Below are positions 43,906 to 50,328 of a DNA stretch of 50,380 bases, in pieces. The notes under the pieces were generated by a model, which did no database searches, had not been told where the DNA came from, and saw only the letters and a program-made list of their open reading frames with translations. The number at the start of each line of letters is the position of its first letter. Position 1 is the stretch's first letter. The position numbers and the translations under genes are program-made. Origin of the DNA: an uncultured Peptococcaceae bacterium (GTDB lineage: Bacteria > Bacillota > Peptococcia > Peptococcales > Peptococcaceae); assembly GCA_900552455.1 (NCBI GenBank), contig URZX01000016.1:1-50380 (forward strand). Reading direction: 5' to 3'.

Positions 43906-44041
43906 CCATAAATACTCCATCATAAATAGAATGATTCCGTTCCATAAGCCAGCTTTATATAATAAGGGTGTAAAGATAAATCCATGGATTGCCGCTTAGA
44001 AAATCGTAAAAAATTCATTCGAAACGTAAGGAGTGTTAAAA

Positions 44042-46087
44042 ATGACTTGCAGTCGAAAAGCTTTAACCGATAAGATCATCGTATTAGGCGTAGATGGTTT
44101 AGATCCACGCTTGACGAAAAAGTTTATGGACCAAGGAAAAATGCCTAACCTGAAGAAATTCGTTGATCGAGGTTCTGCGCGTGAAGATCTTGTTCTGCTC
44201 GGTGCCGTACCAACTGTAACACCTCCACAGTGGACCACCCTTGCTACTGGTGCTTACCCTATGACCCACGGTATTACTGCATTTTTCAACCCACATCCAG
44301 AATACGCAGACAGCTATGTATATGCACTTGATTCTAAGCTTTGCAAAGCGGAACCATTGTGGAATGTATTTGCAGAAGCCGGTAAAAAGACACTCGTATG
44401 GCACTGGCCTGGCTCAAGCTGGCCTCCAACCAGTGACAACCCAAACCTTCATGTTGTAGACGGCACCCAGCCAGGGGCAGTAAACATGGGTACTGCAATT
44501 GTTGACTGGGAAACCATTGTGTACGCAGCAGAAGATGTAGATGCTGTTCGCTTCACTGCTCACGATGCACCAAATAACCCTGGTGTAGGTTGCGTCATTA
44601 CAGACGTAGATGAGCTTGAAGGTGGAAACGAAGGTAAAGGGTCGAAAGCGCTCACCAGTGCCCTTGGCGGTGGTGCAGCACGCATGAAATCCTGCTTGCT
44701 GGATGAAAGTGATACCGAAATCGAGACCCTTGGTGTAGTTAACCTTAACCTTGTCAATTCCCCTCTTAAACCAGCTACTGGTTGGGTAGATGCGCCAGCA
44801 GATGCCAAAGAATTCACCATTCTGACCTCTAATGGTTTTGTTCGTCGTCCATCGTTATTGCTTAAGAATGAAGATGGCGTTTATGACACAGTAGCAGTCT
44901 ATAAATCTAAAAAAGATCAAGAACCTGTCGTAATCGTTAAAAGCGGTGAATACAACCCTGACTTTATCGACGAAGTTATCGCCAAGGATCAAAAACTCGT
45001 TGCAAATCGAAATACCAGCATTCTCGAAATCGCGCCAGATGGATCCAAGCTTAGAATGTGGATGAGTGTTGCATACGACATGAGCAAAAATTCGTTGTTC
45101 CATCCAGAAAGCCTGTACGAAGAAATCACTTCTAACATTGGTGCAGTGCCACCTATCAGTATGGCAACAGGCCGTAACCCTGAGTATGTAGAAAAACTTC
45201 TCCTTCCAGCATGGGATTATTATTGCGATTGGCAGGCAAGAGCTCTTACATACCTGATGAACGAAGACTATGACGTTATCTTCTCTCATCTCCACAATGT
45301 TGACCTCTGCGGTCATCAGTTCTGGCATTATGCAAAACATCGTAATGTATGGAACAACGATGAAAAACTGTACCAGGGCTACATTCAGTACATCTATGAA
45401 CAGACTGACCGTTATTTCGAACAGTTCCTGCCTTATTTAGATGAGGGCTGGACCATGATAATCACCTCTGACCACGGACTTATCACTGAAGAAAACCATC
45501 CTCCAGGATTCGGCGAAGCTAAGAATAATGCGACGGTCATGGTAGATCTCGGATATACAGTGCTTAAGGAAGATGAAAATGGAAATACCTTACCAGAAGT
45601 TGACCTGAGCAAGACCAAAGCGTGCATGAACCGTGGTGGATATGTAACCATCAACCTTAAAGGAAAATTTAAAGACGGTATCGTTGATCCATCTGAAAAG
45701 GATGCATTGGAAGAACAGATCATCGATGACTTGTATAACTATAGAGATCCGATCACAGGCAAACGTGTTGTCGCACTTGCGTTCCGCAACAAAGATGCGG
45801 CTGCCATCGGCTTGGGCGGCGATCTCTGTGGTGATGTCATTTGCTTCATGACTGAAGGCTTTAACATCATTCATATGGATTCTCTTGCAACGCAAAAAGG
45901 CTATTTTGATACCTCTGTATCGCCTATCTTCATCGCAGCTGGCCCTGGTATCAAGGAAGGGTACACGACTTCCCGTGTTATCCGTCAGGTTGACGTAACA
46001 CCAACGATGGCAGTATTGGGCGGTGTAAGAATGCCTCATGAATGTGAAGGCGCACCTGCTTATCAGATTCTGACTGAAGAATTCTAA
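44042..46087 (+). CDS. type I phosphodiesterase / alkaline phosphatase superfamily enzyme
   Basis: This 681-residue enzyme has the alkaline phosphatase superfamily core. The first metal ligand is D18 in VLGVDGLDP and the likely nucleophile is T60 in PTVTPPQWTTLATG. Other ligands lie in HNVDLCGHQFW and TSDHGLITEENH, and VTPTMAVLGG sits near the C-terminus. It resembles nucleotide pyrophosphatase/phosphodiesterases. There is no signal peptide, so it should act in the cytosol. I chose ATG 44042, 9 bases after AGGAG, over the in-frame GTG at 44033. The adjacent permease suggests import and hydrolysis of an anionic ester; this is inference. Its codon use is AT-richer than upstream genes. Confidence 0.85.
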   Translation: MTCSRKALTDKIIVLGVDGLDPRLTKKFMDQGKMPNLKKFVDRGSAREDLVLLGAVPTVTPPQWTTLATGAYPMTHGITAFFNPHPEYADSYVYALDSKLCKAEPLWNVFAEAGKKTLVWHWPGSSWPPTSDNPNLHVVDGTQPGAVNMGTAIVDWETIVYAAEDVDAVRFTAHDAPNNPGVGCVITDVDELEGGNEGKGSKALTSALGGGAARMKSCLLDESDTEIETLGVVNLNLVNSPLKPATGWVDAPADAKEFTILTSNGFVRRPSLLLKNEDGVYDTVAVYKSKKDQEPVVIVKSGEYNPDFIDEVIAKDQKLVANRNTSILEIAPDGSKLRMWMSVAYDMSKNSLFHPESLYEEITSNIGAVPPISMATGRNPEYVEKLLLPAWDYYCDWQARALTYLMNEDYDVIFSHLHNVDLCGHQFWHYAKHRNVWNNDEKLYQGYIQYIYEQTDRYFEQFLPYLDEGWTMIITSDHGLITEENHPPGFGEAKNNATVMVDLGYTVLKEDENGNTLPEVDLSKTKACMNRGGYVTINLKGKFKDGIVDPSEKDALEEQIIDDLYNYRDPITGKRVVALAFRNKDAAAIGLGGDLCGDVICFMTEGFNIIHMDSLATQKGYFDTSVSPIFIAAGPGIKEGYTTSRVIRQVDVTPTMAVLGGVRMPHECEGAPAYQILTEEF

Positions 46088-46100
46088 AACGAAACAATTA

Positions 46101-46140
46101 TAGGGCTGATGTCATGAAAATAGTTCAAACATCAGCCCTA
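46101..46140 (+). terminator. hairpin between phosphodiesterase and permease
   Basis: TAGGGCTGATGT (46101-46112) pairs perfectly with ACATCAGCCCTA (46129-46140), followed by ATTTAAAATA. The T-run is poor, so it may be a partial terminator or an mRNA processing/stability element that sets relative expression of the two genes. Confidence 0.5.
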
Positions 46141-46178
46141 ATTTAAAATAACAAAGAGATCGAAGGGAGTGTAAGGTC

Positions 46179-47639
46179 ATGACTGAACAAGTGGCAAAGA
46201 AAAATACCGTTTTTTATATACACGTACTAATCACCATCTTCTTTATGTTCTTCTTTGGCTTTATTCCACCGATTGAGCCAATTACCCCGCTTGGTATGAA
46301 AATGCTTGGGATATTTATCGGGCTTGTATATGCATGGACCACGACGACATTATTATGGCCTAGCTTTTTAGGCATGATCGCAGTTGTTACTACTGGCGTG
46401 ACAACAATGACTGATTTTGCAGCTCTTTCCTTTGGGAATGAGACTGTTGTTTTCATGATCCTCATTACAGCATTTGCAACTGCATTAGACAGAGCTGGCC
46501 TGGTAAACTTTCTTTCCAGCTGGATTATCAGCCGTAAAATTGTTGAGGGCAGACCATGGATCTTTACTCTGTTAATGCTCTATGGCGCTTTTCTTGGTGG
46601 CATGCTCGTAAATACTCTTGCCAGTGTCATTTTCTTTTGGAAGATATTGTATACGGTTTGTGATGAGTTCGGATTTAAGAAATATGAAAAATATCCTTCT
46701 TTAATGATTTTAGGCATTGTTTTTGCTTCTATGACCGCCGGCGGGACAGTTTTTCCATTCCGCTTAACAGGTTTGATCCTGCTTGGTGCGATTGAATCTG
46801 TCACAAAAATGTCTGTATCATTCTTCTCATATATTTTATTCACGTTGCCTCTCAGTATTATTCTGGTTCTGGTGTATTACCTGATCATGCGTTTTATTTT
46901 CAGACCAGACTTATCTCGAATGAATAAGATAAGTATCGATTTTATCGACCCTAAGGATCTGATCCTGAGCAAAACGCAAAAATTTGCTGCGTTCCTGACT
47001 GGCGTTATGATCGTACTACTCATGAGCGTAGACCTTATCCAGATGGCTTTCCCTGGAAGCGTTGTAGCCAATATCCTGTCTGGTTGGGGCGTTATCGGTG
47101 TTATTCTTGTCATCATTTGCTTTGCTATGGTGACTAGAATTGATGGGAAACCGTTTATGAATTATCAAGATGCTGCTAAAGGGATCGACTGGAGCATGAT
47201 GTATTTGTTTGCGATCATCCTGCCATTTTCCAGCCTTCTTACAAGTGATGCAACAGGGATCAACACCTTCCTTGTTCAGCTACTATCGCCAATTTTCGGA
47301 GGCAAAACCTTCCTGTTGTTTGCCTTTATCGTATTGTTGATCGTTACTTTGTTAACAAACGTTGCCAACAACGCTGTTATCATCGTTATCTTCATCAATA
47401 TTTGCACCCCTATTTGCGCTAGCATGGACATTTCACCAATTCCTCTTATCATGGTCATCCTGTGGTGCGGACAGCTCGCTTACATGACGCCAGCAGCTTC
47501 TGCTCCAGCAGCATTTGTCTTTGGTAATAGTGAATGGATCAAAGCATCGATGATGTACAAATACATTGCGATCATTCTCGTGATCATGTTTGTAGTATGT
47601 TATGTTATCGGCTTACCGTTAGCCAATCTAATTTTCTAA
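46179..47639 (+). CDS. DASS/SLC13-family anion permease
   Basis: This 486-residue integral membrane protein has about 12 hydrophobic helices in two similar halves, as in divalent anion:sodium symporters (DASS, SLC13). The substrate and sodium-binding loops appear as MLVNTLASVIFF in the first half and LLTNVANNAVIIV in the second, departing from the usual SNT form. A late MTPAASAPAAFVFG loop is also typical. The substrate may be a dicarboxylate, sulfate or organic phosphate ester. The upstream cytosolic phosphodiesterase makes an organic ester attractive, but not proven. The ribosome binding site is GAAGGGAGTG. Confidence 0.85.
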   Translation: MTEQVAKKNTVFYIHVLITIFFMFFFGFIPPIEPITPLGMKMLGIFIGLVYAWTTTTLLWPSFLGMIAVVTTGVTTMTDFAALSFGNETVVFMILITAFATALDRAGLVNFLSSWIISRKIVEGRPWIFTLLMLYGAFLGGMLVNTLASVIFFWKILYTVCDEFGFKKYEKYPSLMILGIVFASMTAGGTVFPFRLTGLILLGAIESVTKMSVSFFSYILFTLPLSIILVLVYYLIMRFIFRPDLSRMNKISIDFIDPKDLILSKTQKFAAFLTGVMIVLLMSVDLIQMAFPGSVVANILSGWGVIGVILVIICFAMVTRIDGKPFMNYQDAAKGIDWSMMYLFAIILPFSSLLTSDATGINTFLVQLLSPIFGGKTFLLFAFIVLLIVTLLTNVANNAVIIVIFINICTPICASMDISPIPLIMVILWCGQLAYMTPAASAPAAFVFGNSEWIKASMMYKYIAIILVIMFVVCYVIGLPLANLIF

Positions 47640-47648
47640 AAAAATATG

Positions 47649-47692
47649 AAAGGAAAATAGTGCGCAGTCCGATTGGAACTGCGCACTAAGTG
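47649..47692 (+). promoter_or_regulatory. ribosome binding site bridged to GTG start by a hairpin
   Basis: AAAGGA (47649-47654) is the only good ribosome binding sequence before the zinc-ribbon gene. AGTGCGCAGT (47659-47668) pairs perfectly with ACTGCGCACT (47678-47687). The GTG start is at 47690-47692. If the hairpin forms, the effective spacing from GGA to GTG is about 6 bases; without it the distance is 35. No T-run follows, so it is not a usual terminator. Confidence 0.5.
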
Positions 47693-48145
47693 ATTATGAT
47701 GGATATTTTAAAGCGCTACAATTCAAACGGAAGAGTTGAAAGCTTAAAGAAAAGAACTGAACGATGCTGTTGTAAATATTGTGGTGGAAAATTAGAAATA
47801 AGAAGGATCATCTTTAGTCAAGATGAAGACGCACGTATTGAACTTTTTTGTAGTCAATGTGACCGCATCGAATATGGGGTAGAACCTGAAATTTATTCAG
47901 TAGCAAAACATTTTGTCGACTATCTCCAGTTCGATCACTACCCAGAATTAGACAAAAATCAGCAAACCCGGCGAATGAATATTGCAAAGGTATGTGAAAT
48001 CATCACGTGGGGAGTTAAAAATCTCGGCCTTCTCTCACCAGATGGTTTTAATGCTCCAGTTGTTATGCGAGAAGAAATAGGAGAAGACTGTTTGCTATTG
48101 ACAGAAAGCCTAATTAAAGAAAGGAAAGTGAAGGAAAATGAGTAA
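47690..48145 (+). CDS. zinc-ribbon protein of unknown function
   Basis: This 151-residue soluble protein has a zinc ribbon built from C28-x2-C31 (CKYCGGKLE) and C54-x2-C57 (CSQCDRIEYG), with a further cysteine pair at 26-27. The C-terminal half is helical (AKVCEIITWGVKNLGLLSPDGFN) and I do not recognise it. Start choices are GTG 47690, ATG 47696 or ATG 47699. I prefer GTG because it best suits the hairpin-bridged ribosome binding site. The end overlaps the ABC ATPase gene by 8 bases, implying a joint role. Confidence 0.65.
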   Translation: MIMMDILKRYNSNGRVESLKKRTERCCCKYCGGKLEIRRIIFSQDEDARIELFCSQCDRIEYGVEPEIYSVAKHFVDYLQFDHYPELDKNQQTRRMNIAKVCEIITWGVKNLGLLSPDGFNAPVVMREEIGEDCLLLTESLIKERKVKENE

Positions 48146-48977
48146 TACAGCTATTAATTGCCACAATATATGCTGTCAGTCCGGTCATCGCTTTCTTTTA
48201 AAAAATATTAACTGGCAAGTAAAAGAAGGGGAGCATTGGGTTGTATTCGGAATGAACGGAAGCGGCAAAACGACTCTTTTGTCTCTAATTGCCGGCTTCA
48301 AAGTACAAACCAGCGGCTCGGTCAAAATATTTGGTGAAGAGTATGGGAACAATAATGTCCTCAAACTACGAAAAAAGATTGGCTGGGTAAGTGGATCCTT
48401 TTTTGACAAATTTTTTTCTCAGGAAACAAGTTTAAATATTGTTTTATCTGGCGTTTGTGGCACCTTTTGTCCAGATGACTCTATCACAGATGAGGATGTC
48501 ATTAAGGCAAAAGAATTGCTTAGGCAACTGAGCCTGGGGGATAAATTTGACCGCCAATATAAGACGTTAAGCAAAGGCGAACAACAAAGTGTTTTGATAG
48601 CCAGATCACTGATCGGAGAACCAGATATCCTTGTTCTCGATGAACCTGGAACAGGATTGGATGTTCAAGCAAGAGAATCTATGCTGCAACTTGTCAAAGA
48701 TTTGGCTGAACATACAAGTGTAACTATAATATACGTTACACATTATCCGGAAGAAATACTGGAGTTGTTTGATCACTGCCTTTTATTGCGTCACGGAAGG
48801 ATATTTAAAATTGGCCCAACTGAAGAATTAATGTCGTCTGAGACACTATCATCTTTTTTAGAGAAGCCTATCCACGTAGAAAAATATAAAGGAAGCTGCA
48901 GGTGGCTACCACTCCAGATGGTTTGCCACGGTCCTAAAAAGTTCGATTTGAAGGGAGTGAAGAGGAGTTATGGCTGA
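48138..48977 (+). CDS. ABC ATPase resembling YlmA/ModF, no permease nearby
   Basis: This 279-residue ABC ATPase has a Walker A GMNGSGKTT at residues 38-46, signature LSKGEQQ at 144-150 rather than LSGGQ, Walker B ILVLDEPGTGLD at 164-175, and switch histidine H202 in VTHYPEEI. The pattern, with SGSFFDKFFSQETSLNIVLSG between, recalls YlmA/ModF-like proteins, some annotated as iron or molybdate transport ATPases without clear permeases. No membrane partner lies beside it here. It overlaps both neighbours by 8 bases, so the three genes are probably translated together. Transport, regulation or a non-transport role are all possible. Confidence 0.8.
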   Translation: MSNTAINCHNICCQSGHRFLLKNINWQVKEGEHWVVFGMNGSGKTTLLSLIAGFKVQTSGSVKIFGEEYGNNNVLKLRKKIGWVSGSFFDKFFSQETSLNIVLSGVCGTFCPDDSITDEDVIKAKELLRQLSLGDKFDRQYKTLSKGEQQSVLIARSLIGEPDILVLDEPGTGLDVQARESMLQLVKDLAEHTSVTIIYVTHYPEEILELFDHCLLLRHGRIFKIGPTEELMSSETLSSFLEKPIHVEKYKGSCRWLPLQMVCHGPKKFDLKGVKRSYG

Positions 48978-49896
48978 ATTTTTCAGAGACATGCAAGTAA
49001 GTATGGATGTTGGCAAAATGGTAGAACTCGGTAAATTCGATAAAGAGTTTACTGCTTATGGATGTGCCTATCTTCAGAATGGAGAAGTTTATATTCCTGT
49101 CAGTGAACATGCAGAAACGATTTATAGGATACGCGAGAAAAAACAACTGGAAGGGATCTATCCGAGCAATGTTGTTGACTATCACATCACGACGAAAGTG
49201 CCAGCTGGCGCAATTGATGATATATGGGAAGAGGTAAAGTGGAGCCTGGGAGAGCAACTGCTAAATGCCTTTCCTAAACAATACCTGGATATACTCAATA
49301 CTATTGGCAACTTACCCCCTGAAGACAACATGCATTTGGTTCTCGAAGATCTAAAGACAAGAATTGAAGGGCTATTTGCCAAGGATATACTTGCCTTATT
49401 TGACGCTATTGTTGTAGAATGTTATTTGAGTAAGCAATTAGATAATAAACACTTTAAGGAATTAAAAAGTTGGTCAGATAATATTTGGAGACAGATGGAA
49501 GATGATCCTGAGATTAAAGATATCCACTCAAGAACCTTGAATGGCTTCGCATATCTGGAAAACGAAAAAATAAAATATAAGGTAAATGCGCAGTATGTTC
49601 ATGTAGTAAAAAGCAGGCAGATTTTACGAAGCCAAGGAATACTAACAACCCCAATCTACAGTGAAATGTGTTGGTACTCAACGCAATCTCAATTCCCTGC
49701 AAAAAGACAAGCTTACGACAAAAAACTAAAGGAATTTATGGAGGTAACAATGGAGATCATGTGTTACCTGGAAAAGCAGAAATCCTTTTCTGGTAGAAAA
49801 GAATTCTTAGAAGAATACGAGAAAGTAAAAGATCTAAATAATGAATTGGTAACTGGTACTTTCCAATTTTATGGGTATCAGTGGCATTGCTTCTAA
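48970..49896 (+). CDS. 308-residue protein of unknown function with an internal duplication
   Basis: I recognise no family for this protein. Two segments align at equal spacing. GCAYLQN (from G31) recurs as GFAYLEN (from G192); in both, V follows 13 residues, R 24 residues and GI 31 residues after the first G. The copies are 161 residues apart. There is no signal peptide or membrane helix; much of it looks helical and charged (DAIVVECYLSKQLDNKHFKELK). The start ATG 48970 follows AGAGGAG. It ends 24 bases before a LysR gene's AAGGAGG region and is coupled to the ABC ATPase by an 8-base overlap. Confidence 0.65.
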   Translation: MAEFFRDMQVSMDVGKMVELGKFDKEFTAYGCAYLQNGEVYIPVSEHAETIYRIREKKQLEGIYPSNVVDYHITTKVPAGAIDDIWEEVKWSLGEQLLNAFPKQYLDILNTIGNLPPEDNMHLVLEDLKTRIEGLFAKDILALFDAIVVECYLSKQLDNKHFKELKSWSDNIWRQMEDDPEIKDIHSRTLNGFAYLENEKIKYKVNAQYVHVVKSRQILRSQGILTTPIYSEMCWYSTQSQFPAKRQAYDKKLKEFMEVTMEIMCYLEKQKSFSGRKEFLEEYEKVKDLNNELVTGTFQFYGYQWHCF

Positions 49897-49926
49897 TGCT
49901 TTTATAGTAATAAGGAGGATATGTCT

Positions 49927-50328
49927 ATGCGAATCGAACAACTCAGATATTTTGTTGAAACCGCAGAATCCGCCTCTATAAATAAAGCAAGCGAACGACT
50001 TTTTATTAGCCAACAAAGCTTAAACGCATCATTAACTAAATTGGAAGAAGAACTTGGTGTTACATTATTTACGCGATCCTCACAAGGTATCCATTTAACC
50101 AGAGAAGGCCTTGTGGTTGTCGAATATGCATTGGATGTGCTAGAGAGAACAAAAAAATTAAAAGAAATCCTTCTACAAAGACCTGATTCATTACAGGGAA
50201 CATTGGAGATATCCGCTGGTCCGGCTTTTAGTTATGATGTTCTGCCTAAAGTCGTCTCTAAAATGCATCAGTTGCATGAGGAAGTTTCAGTATCATGTAT
50301 CGAAAGAGAAAGCCTGGATATGATCTGA
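49927..50328 (+). pseudogene. LysR-type regulator, truncated after 133 residues
   Basis: The N-terminal winged helix-turn-helix is intact (MRIEQLRYFVETAESASINKASERLF then SQQSLNASLTKLEEELG), followed by the linker helix and the start of the ligand-binding domain (LQGTLEISAGPAFSYDVLPK). A TGA at 50326-50328 ends the frame at 133 residues; the family is usually about 290-300. Both other frames also close within 50334 or so. I chose ATG 49927, 8 bases after AAGGAGG, over ATG 49921, which is only 2 bases away. It may still bind DNA but cannot sense a ligand normally. Confidence 0.7.

What the first reader, a model, noticed from the sequence alone, without database searches (positions are those of the whole stretch)
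47649..49896. Three-gene overlapping operon: zinc ribbon, lone ABC ATPase and a 308-residue unknown
Three genes overlap by 8 bases each, a strong sign of joint function. The ABC ATPase has the variant signature LSKGEQQ and no permease, so it may not be a normal transporter. Both partners are unrecognised apart from one zinc ribbon. Together with the AT-rich composition this is the best candidate for an undescribed system in the window.
Basis: partly seen in the sequence, partly recalled or inferred. Interest (0 to 1): 0.75.

Follow-up and report, generated by a model that had tools for sequence, protein, structure and literature searches.

The report
ABC ATPase module beside anion hydrolases
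Three overlapping genes encode a soluble ABC motor protein and two proteins of unnamed families that, in related gut and sediment bacteria, recur beside an intracellular phosphodiesterase-type enzyme and an organic-anion carrier, which suggests an undescribed energy-driven partner of that enzyme rather than a transporter.

Summary
Three genes (zinc ribbon ZR, ABC ATPase, 308-residue U308) overlap by 8 bases each. ZR and U308 reach no Pfam or NCBIfam cut-off and no solved structure. The unit is larger than the triad: it sits with a cytoplasmic alkaline-phosphatase-superfamily phosphodiesterase (PDE), a secondary anion carrier and a LysR regulator. Among 65 ZR copies, an ABC ATPase is adjacent in 64, a PDE within 4 kb in 59 and U308 within 1 kb in 46. 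No ABC permease recurs. The nearest carrier is DASS-type in 42 of 63 ABC cassettes and an aromatic-acid-type MFS carrier in 10; carrier type is random on the ABC tree, whereas U308 presence is clustered. ABC and ZR distances follow PDE distances more than carrier distances. All 18 ZR-bearing genomes of 107 searched also carry the PDE. Distribution is narrow: 5 of 398 phylum-wide genomes, all already known. U308 is internally duplicated, with no confident fold match. My best reading, which is inferred, is an ATP-driven partner that remodels or loads the PDE, as PhnK does in C-P lyase. Substrate and mechanism are untested.

The parts
44033..46087 (+). PDE: 684-aa alkaline-phosphatase-superfamily phosphodiesterase (PF01663), no hydrophobic signal segment; catalytic set D21, T63, D424, H428, D480, H481, H614 (roles assigned from family knowledge)
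   Evidence: Pfam 1.4e-33; six of the seven residues in 67 of 67 relatives, H614 in 66 of 67; top 19-residue hydropathy 1.40
46179..47639 (+). DASS/CitMHS-type secondary anion carrier, 486 aa
   Evidence: PF03600 5e-18; TIGR00785 3.6e-20 but below its cut-off; VcINDY relatives in PDB
47658..47688 (.). perfect 11-bp inverted repeat between DASS and ZR, no T run; stems of 8 bp or more near 13 of 65 ZR starts (this one included), of differing sequence
47690..48145 (+). ZR: zinc-ribbon protein, 151 aa (true start probably 47696 or 47699)
   Evidence: CxxC/CxxC in 65 of 65 copies
48138..48977 (+). ABC: soluble lone ABC ATPase, 279 aa, 2ihy/4hzi/ModF-like
48970..49896 (+). U308: 308-aa protein of unnamed family, two beta-beta-alpha-beta repeats (about 24-76 and 186-236) around a helical middle
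   Evidence: no confident fold match
49921..50328 (+). LysR-type regulator, ORF stops after 135 aa close to the window end (truncated or assembly edge)

Best explanation
The triad is the ATP-driven accessory part of an organic-anion uptake-and-hydrolysis cassette. SHOWN: ZR-ABC (plus U308) recurs with a phosphodiesterase-type metallohydrolase gene (PDE), usually a secondary organic-anion carrier (DASS or aromatic-acid-type MFS) and a LysR regulator. No ABC permease recurs beside the ABC gene, whose distances co-vary with ZR, U308 and PDE more than with the carrier. INFERRED: the regulator turns the cassette on, the carrier brings an anionic ester or phosphonate-like compound into the cell, and PDE cleaves it there. 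An ABC dimer, docked through the zinc-ribbon protein and (in the long-ZR form) the pseudo-twofold U308 adaptor, uses ATP to open, load or release substrate from the PDE, much as PhnK and PhnL remodel the C-P lyase core.
For: Linkage among 65 ZR copies: ABC adjacent in 64, PDE within 4 kb in 59, U308 within 1 kb in 46, DASS within 4 kb in 39. Dependence: 18 of 18 ZR-bearing genomes carry the PDE, against 39 of 107 examined. Distance correlation on the same 32 cassettes: PDE-ABC 0.56, PDE-ZR 0.48, ABC-ZR 0.49, but DASS-ABC 0.24 (p 0.018) and DASS-ZR 0.06. Carrier type needs 9 changes on the ABC tree for 10 MFS of 52 scored, against 9.4 in shuffles, that is, random; U308 presence needs 3 against 13.6. 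ZR tail goes with U308: 45 of 46 ZR copies with U308 match the ZR model to position 137-145 (one to 127), 17 without only to 115-124; two more without U308 (140, 144) lie at contig ends. PDE residues are intact and its best solved match is phosphonoacetate hydrolase. U308 is an internal duplication (hhalign probability 97.8, E 7.8e-13), which fits a partner of a dimer. Precedent: non-transporter ABC ATPases open C-P lyase on ATP hydrolysis (PMC9947105, passages read).
Against: PDE does not need the triad: 21 of 39 PDE-bearing genomes lack ZR, and PDEs beside a ZR are not a clade of their own (20 label changes against 21.7 in shuffles). Co-variation can reflect cassettes copied as a block rather than contact. 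In the 23-cassette subset that also has U308, DASS-ZR rises to 0.29 (0 of 500 permutations) and PDE-ABC falls to 0.40. LysR-ABC is also above chance (0.30). No complex, ATPase activity or substrate was measured. No PhnK or PhnL model is among the 25 best of 200 NCBIfam hits of ABC.
Confidence: 0.35

Rival explanations
1. Maturation: ABC and ZR (with U308) load the zinc or other metal pair into the PDE, a metallochaperone role; ATP drives release of metal or apo-enzyme.
For: ZR keeps four candidate metal-binding Cys in 65 of 65 copies; PDE keeps its metal-ligand residues; ZR was found only in PDE-bearing genomes, 18 of 18; fewer ZR than PDE copies per genome (12 ZR and at least 25 PDE in G001).
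Against: 21 of 39 PDE-bearing genomes have no ZR. A four-Cys ribbon is usually structural (recalled). No metal assay.
Confidence: 0.22
2. Energised carrier: the ABC ATPase couples to the adjacent secondary carrier and turns it into an ATP-driven pump, as ArsA does with ArsB (also of the ion-transporter superfamily, recalled).
For: DASS lies directly upstream in the window; DASS is the nearest carrier within 6.5 kb of 42 of 63 ABC copies; DASS-ABC distances correlate weakly (0.24, p 0.018) and DASS-ZR 0.29 in the U308 subset.
Against: The nearest carrier is an unrelated MFS family in 10 of 63, placed at random on the ABC tree (9 changes, 9.4 in shuffles); 11 of 63 have neither within 6.5 kb (six of these on stretches under 11 kb); DASS distances follow ABC and ZR less than PDE distances do.
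Confidence: 0.13
3. Sensor or regulator: the triad reads ligand or ATP status and controls LysR or the carrier.
For: LysR within 8 kb in 50 of 65; LysR-ABC distance correlation 0.25-0.30, above chance.
Against: LysR-PDE distances are uncorrelated (-0.10). LysR genes also stand next to PDE-carrier pairs without a triad, for example in L061 and L100.
Confidence: 0.12
4. Ordinary ABC transporter whose permease lies elsewhere in the genome, with chance or loose neighbours.
For: Lone NBDs can serve remote permeases (recalled). One ABC-2 permease (in L086) and two ECF S components (L063, L093) lie within 3.5 kb of a ZR.
Against: Constant ZR partner (64 of 65); those three are single cases among 22 membrane ORFs (4 or more segments, within 3.5 kb, DASS apart); no ABC-permease family among the 25 commonest of 100 families in 76 flanking proteins.
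Confidence: 0.07

Closest known systems
Lone ABC ATPases of the 2ihy / 4hzi / ModF-like group
   Same: Similarity over nearly the whole chain (E 8.6e-51 over residues 17-252 with 2ihy, 2.7e-45 over 4-260 with 4hzi); signature LSxGE
   Different: Here paired with the ZR family (64 of 65) and tied to PDE cassettes; far below the ModF cut-off (132 bits against 459). That 2ihy and 4hzi act without a permease is recalled
PhnK/PhnL of C-P lyase
   Same: Non-transporter ABC ATPase tied to a phosphonate-type metalloenzyme; precedent for ATP-driven opening (PMC9947105, passages)
   Different: No PhnK/PhnL model among the 25 best NCBIfam hits; no C-P lyase core genes seen in the cassette; the enzyme is an alkaline-phosphatase-superfamily hydrolase; likeness of mode is inferred
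ArsA-ArsB
   Same: ATPase next to a carrier of the ion-transporter superfamily (recalled)
   Different: ABC fold, not ArsA; carrier exchangeable with MFS; ZR and U308 have no counterpart
Phosphonoacetate hydrolase / nucleotide pyrophosphatases (the PDE)
   Same: N-terminal catalytic region matches (PDB 3szy 2.7e-13 by profile)
   Different: About 680 aa, no signal segment, many copies per genome, substrate unknown; PhnA model hit 34 bits against a 408 cut-off

Membership tests
ABC transporter | intact nucleotide-binding domain (Walker A/B, signature, switch His) | tested here: met
   PF00005 1.2e-28; K44, D168, E169 in 63 of 63 and H202 in 62 of 63 ABC-labelled rows of 255-300 aa, a few of them not from cassettes
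ABC transporter | cognate ABC permease encoded with it | tested here: not met
   none in the window cassette; of 22 membrane ORFs within 3.5 kb of a ZR, one ABC-2 permease (L086) and two ECF S components, none recurrent
2ihy/ModF-type lone ABC ATPase | near full-length sequence similarity to solved members of the group | tested here: met
   E 8.6e-51 to 2ihy over residues 17-252
ModF (NF008186) | equivalog score at or above cut-off | tested here: not met
   132 bits against 459
C-P lyase (PhnGHIJKL) | PhnG/H/I/J core subunits in the cassette | tested here: not met
   window cassette genes are PDE, DASS, ZR, ABC, U308, LysR; none among the 25 commonest of 100 families in 76 flanking proteins
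C-P lyase (PhnGHIJKL) | ABC remodels the enzyme core on ATP hydrolysis | not testable with these tools
   needs biochemistry or cryo-EM
ArsAB-type energised carrier | ATPase co-inherited with one carrier family | tested here: not met
   carrier type random on the ABC tree: 9 changes, 9.4 in shuffles, 92 of 200 as low
Alkaline-phosphatase superfamily, PF01663 | domain score above gathering cut-off and catalytic residues | tested here: met
   117.4 bits against 23; D21, T63, D424, H428, D480, H481 in 67 of 67 and H614 in 66 of 67
Phosphonoacetate hydrolase (TIGR02335) | equivalog cut-off | tested here: not met
   34.4 bits against 407.55
Known fold for U308 | confident structural match over most of the chain | tested here: inconclusive

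The most novel reading that the evidence does not exclude
A new kind of ATP-powered hydrolase machine: a soluble ABC motor with a zinc-ribbon coupler and a duplicated-domain adaptor that drives or proofreads a hugely expanded set of intracellular alkaline-phosphatase-superfamily enzymes (68 pattern matches in one 3.0-Mb metagenome-bin genome, none for the reversed control). Each cassette would be tuned by its own LysR and exchangeable carrier, giving these anaerobes a modular repertoire for anionic ester or phosphonate compounds.
Probability: 0.25. Interest if true: 0.85.

Novelty: new variant of a known kind. Interest (0 to 1): 0.6.

Why it matters
Lone ABC ATPases of the 2ihy/ModF type are widespread and mostly without a known job (recalled). 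Here one has a constant ZR partner, usually a second partner, a candidate client enzyme and tens of natural copies, so its role becomes testable. The PDE-carrier-LysR repertoire is also a striking gene expansion in uncultured gut bacteria, which I did not find described, and whose substrates are unknown.

Tried and rejected
Family searches: the U308 search with one sequence gave 9 proteins and with a 45-row profile 11; the genome scan with the 9-row alignment matched 234 stretches but confirmed none. A scan with ZR gave 18 loci. Pfam on 45 U308 members gave only scattered weak hits (best 0.0011 in one member), treated as noise; NCBIfam on 25 ZR members likewise (best 0.0099). Fold searches with both U308 models gave no PDB match, and with the second model no viral match, with E of 0.001 or less. 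Some viral rows of 55 or so residues have high Foldseek probability but E above 0.1, and some are named GIY-YIG endonuclease; no GIY-YIG claim is made. ZR alone was not folded. Defence role: PADLOC hits for ABC look like generic ATPase matches; ZR, U308 and PDE have none. Plasmid or phage carriage: ZR has no match in 72,556 plasmid or 50,697 phage records.

Ideas weakened by my own tests: ABC-DASS coupling and a special triad-linked PDE clade (no clustering). The upstream hairpin is not conserved. The idea that PDE is a steroid sulfatase, prompted by recalled work on Peptococcus niger, has no support here beyond a search listing. A thioredoxin-like gene stands near the triad in only 6 of 63 loci, with one weaker hit in L059 and one in the window 39 kb away.

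Literature: searches listed no paper that, by title or start of abstract, describes the cassette; the library is open-licence PMC only. Only PMC9947105 was opened (passages); the other papers were seen as search listings.

Rows dropped: of 62 ZR matches, three pieces were left out of the 65 (two halves of one broken copy in G003, one contig-end piece in G002); the 65 are 59 of those, 5 and the window. A2 used 24 of the 120 listed ZR homologues plus the window; A3 used 29 relatives plus the window, thinned from 67; A4 used U308 of 295 aa or more, thinned at 90%, less two odd-length or cut copies, plus eight database proteins. Distance tests used full-length genes within 4.5 kb (55 PDE, 37 DASS, 43 U308, 42 LysR, 63 ABC of 65). 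The ABC tree left 2 rows unscored for U308 and 11 for carrier. Eleven other ABC-labelled ORFs in the flanks are not cassette members. PDE scoring was capped at 25 per genome. In one search only the 25 commonest of 100 families are shown; searches then scanned 17 of the 22 membrane ORFs (the other five are the MFS carriers already named).

Full report
Observation. The three genes are real and overlap by 8 bases each. ZR keeps four ribbon cysteines in 65 of 65 copies, ABC is a complete nucleotide-binding domain, and U308 looks soluble. ZR, ABC and U308 show no stretch above 1.6 on a 19-residue Kyte-Doolittle scan, while DASS reaches 2.97. The region is AT-rich: 38.1% GC against 53.5% for the window. 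Upstream on the same strand lie a PF01663 phosphodiesterase-type gene and a DASS carrier; downstream lies a LysR ORF that ends after 135 codons.

What recurs. U308 is rarely caught by single-sequence search (9 proteins), but ZR has 201 homologues at E of 0.001 or less. A genome scan with a ZR alignment gave 18 loci, titled Peptococcaceae, Clostridia or Gracilibacteraceae metagenome bins. Searches of whole genomes gave ZR in 13 of 46 genomes of the class of G001 (12 matches in G001; 13 in G003, two of them halves of one broken copy), and in 5 of 61 relatives of G007, including a genome with a 5.86-Mb contig (the size fits Desulfosporosinus orientis as I recall it, not verified). In 398 genomes drawn across the phylum only 5 carry ZR, all already found in these two groups. 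I mapped 63 fetched stretches plus the window. For 65 ZR copies: ABC adjacent 64 (the exception sits 105 bases from the end of its stretch), U308 within 1 kb 46, PDE within 4 kb 59, DASS within 4 kb 39 and within 8 kb 45, LysR within 8 kb 50.

Two forms. Of 46 ZR copies with U308, 45 match the ZR model to position 137-145 and one to 127. Of 19 without U308, 17 match only to 115-124; the other two (140 and 144) lie within 760 bases of a contig end, so U308 may be cut off. On the ABC tree U308 presence needs 3 changes against 13.6 in shuffles, 0 of 500 as low. So the ZR tail, U308 and a part of the ABC family travel together.

Carrier exchange. Nine loci carry an MFS transporter whose two scanned members score best against the aromatic acid/H+ symport subfamily (TIGR00895, below its cut-off). 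Within 6.5 kb of 63 ABC copies the nearest carrier is DASS in 42, this MFS in 10 and neither in 11, six of which lie on stretches under 11 kb (stretch lengths). Carrier type needs 9 changes on the ABC tree against 9.4 in 200 shuffles, 92 of them as low, so it is random there. On the same 32 cassettes the rank correlation of distances is 0.56 for PDE-ABC, 0.48 for PDE-ZR and 0.49 for ABC-ZR (0 of 500 permutations each), against 0.24 for DASS-ABC (p 0.018), 0.25 for DASS-PDE (p 0.010) and 0.06 for DASS-ZR (p 0.234); thinning near-copies to 28 leaves this pattern. In the 23 cassettes that also hold U308 the contrast is weaker: PDE-ABC 0.40, PDE-ZR 0.44, DASS-ABC 0.15, but DASS-ZR 0.29 (0 of 500). 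The wider, unequal sets agree with the main pattern. This points to PDE rather than the carrier as the lasting partner. Against this, PDEs beside a ZR are scattered over the PDE tree (20 changes against 21.7 shuffled), and common descent of a cassette also gives correlation.

No recurrent permease. Of 22 membrane ORFs within 3.5 kb of a ZR (DASS apart), five are the MFS carriers named above. The other 17 were scanned: further MFS proteins, MATE and other carriers or non-transport proteins, one ABC-2 permease (L086), two ECF S components (L063, L093) and one without a match. Eleven further ABC ATPase ORFs stand elsewhere in the flanks; I did not study them.

Dependence. All 18 ZR-bearing genomes carry the PDE at E of 1e-80 or less; PDE is in 15 of 46 and 24 of 61. 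So ZR was found only with PDE, while 21 PDE-bearing genomes lack ZR. The genomes are related, so this is not 18 independent events. PDE is strongly multiplied: a pattern for its nucleophile loop, which fits about four in five (56 by my count) of the 70 PDEs tabulated, matches 68 times in G003 and 28 times in G001; the reversed control gave none in 25 genomes, and five genomes without PDE gave none. The high-copy genomes are metagenome bins, so strain mixing could inflate the counts.

Mechanism. I infer that the carrier brings in an anionic compound, PDE cleaves it, and the ABC dimer with ZR and U308 acts on PDE by ATP-driven opening or loading. The precedent is C-P lyase, where PhnK and PhnL, ABC proteins that are not transporters, bind the core and ATP hydrolysis opens the metal site (PMC9947105, passages). 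This is likeness of mode, not membership. Rivals are metal loading, energising of the carrier, regulation, and an ordinary transporter, in that order.

Novelty. ZR and U308 are families without names in Pfam or NCBIfam. Five searches listed no paper that describes the cassette by title or abstract. The parts ABC, PDE, DASS and MFS are of known kinds, so I rate it a new variant of a known kind, with a larger claim kept in the novel case.

Noticed in passing
genomes G001, G003: Very large paralogue expansion of the approx. 680-aa phosphodiesterase: 68 nucleophile-loop pattern matches in a 3.0-Mb genome and 28 in another, with many DASS and LysR genes in the fetched loci.
   Followed up: partly
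L113:7138-7473, L114:12172-12498, L115:2086-2409, L051:7251-7571, L054:6388-6750, L088:3096-3488: A thioredoxin-like gene (CxxC) near the triad in 6 loci, downstream of U308 within 1 kb in five; in L114 followed by a thioredoxin-reductase-like gene.
   Followed up: partly
window 49921-50328: LysR ORF ends after 135 codons, about half the usual length (recalled), 52 bases before the window end: truncated gene or assembly edge.
   Followed up: no
window 47658-47688: Perfect 11-bp hairpin between DASS and ZR without a T run; different hairpins with stems of 8 bp or more stand at 12 other ZR starts of 65.
   Followed up: partly
window 44033-49896: Cassette is more AT-rich than the window: GC of PDE 45%, DASS 41%, triad 38%, window 53.5%, which may mean recent acquisition.
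   Followed up: no
L068, L071, L079, L086, L093: A short-chain dehydrogenase-type gene lies near the cassette in 5 loci (one scanned, L079), a possible hint to the product chemistry.
   Followed up: no
G003:C141:22202-22467: A broken ZR copy in two pieces, left out of all counts; no other cassette gene was recognised on that stretch (L087).
   Followed up: no
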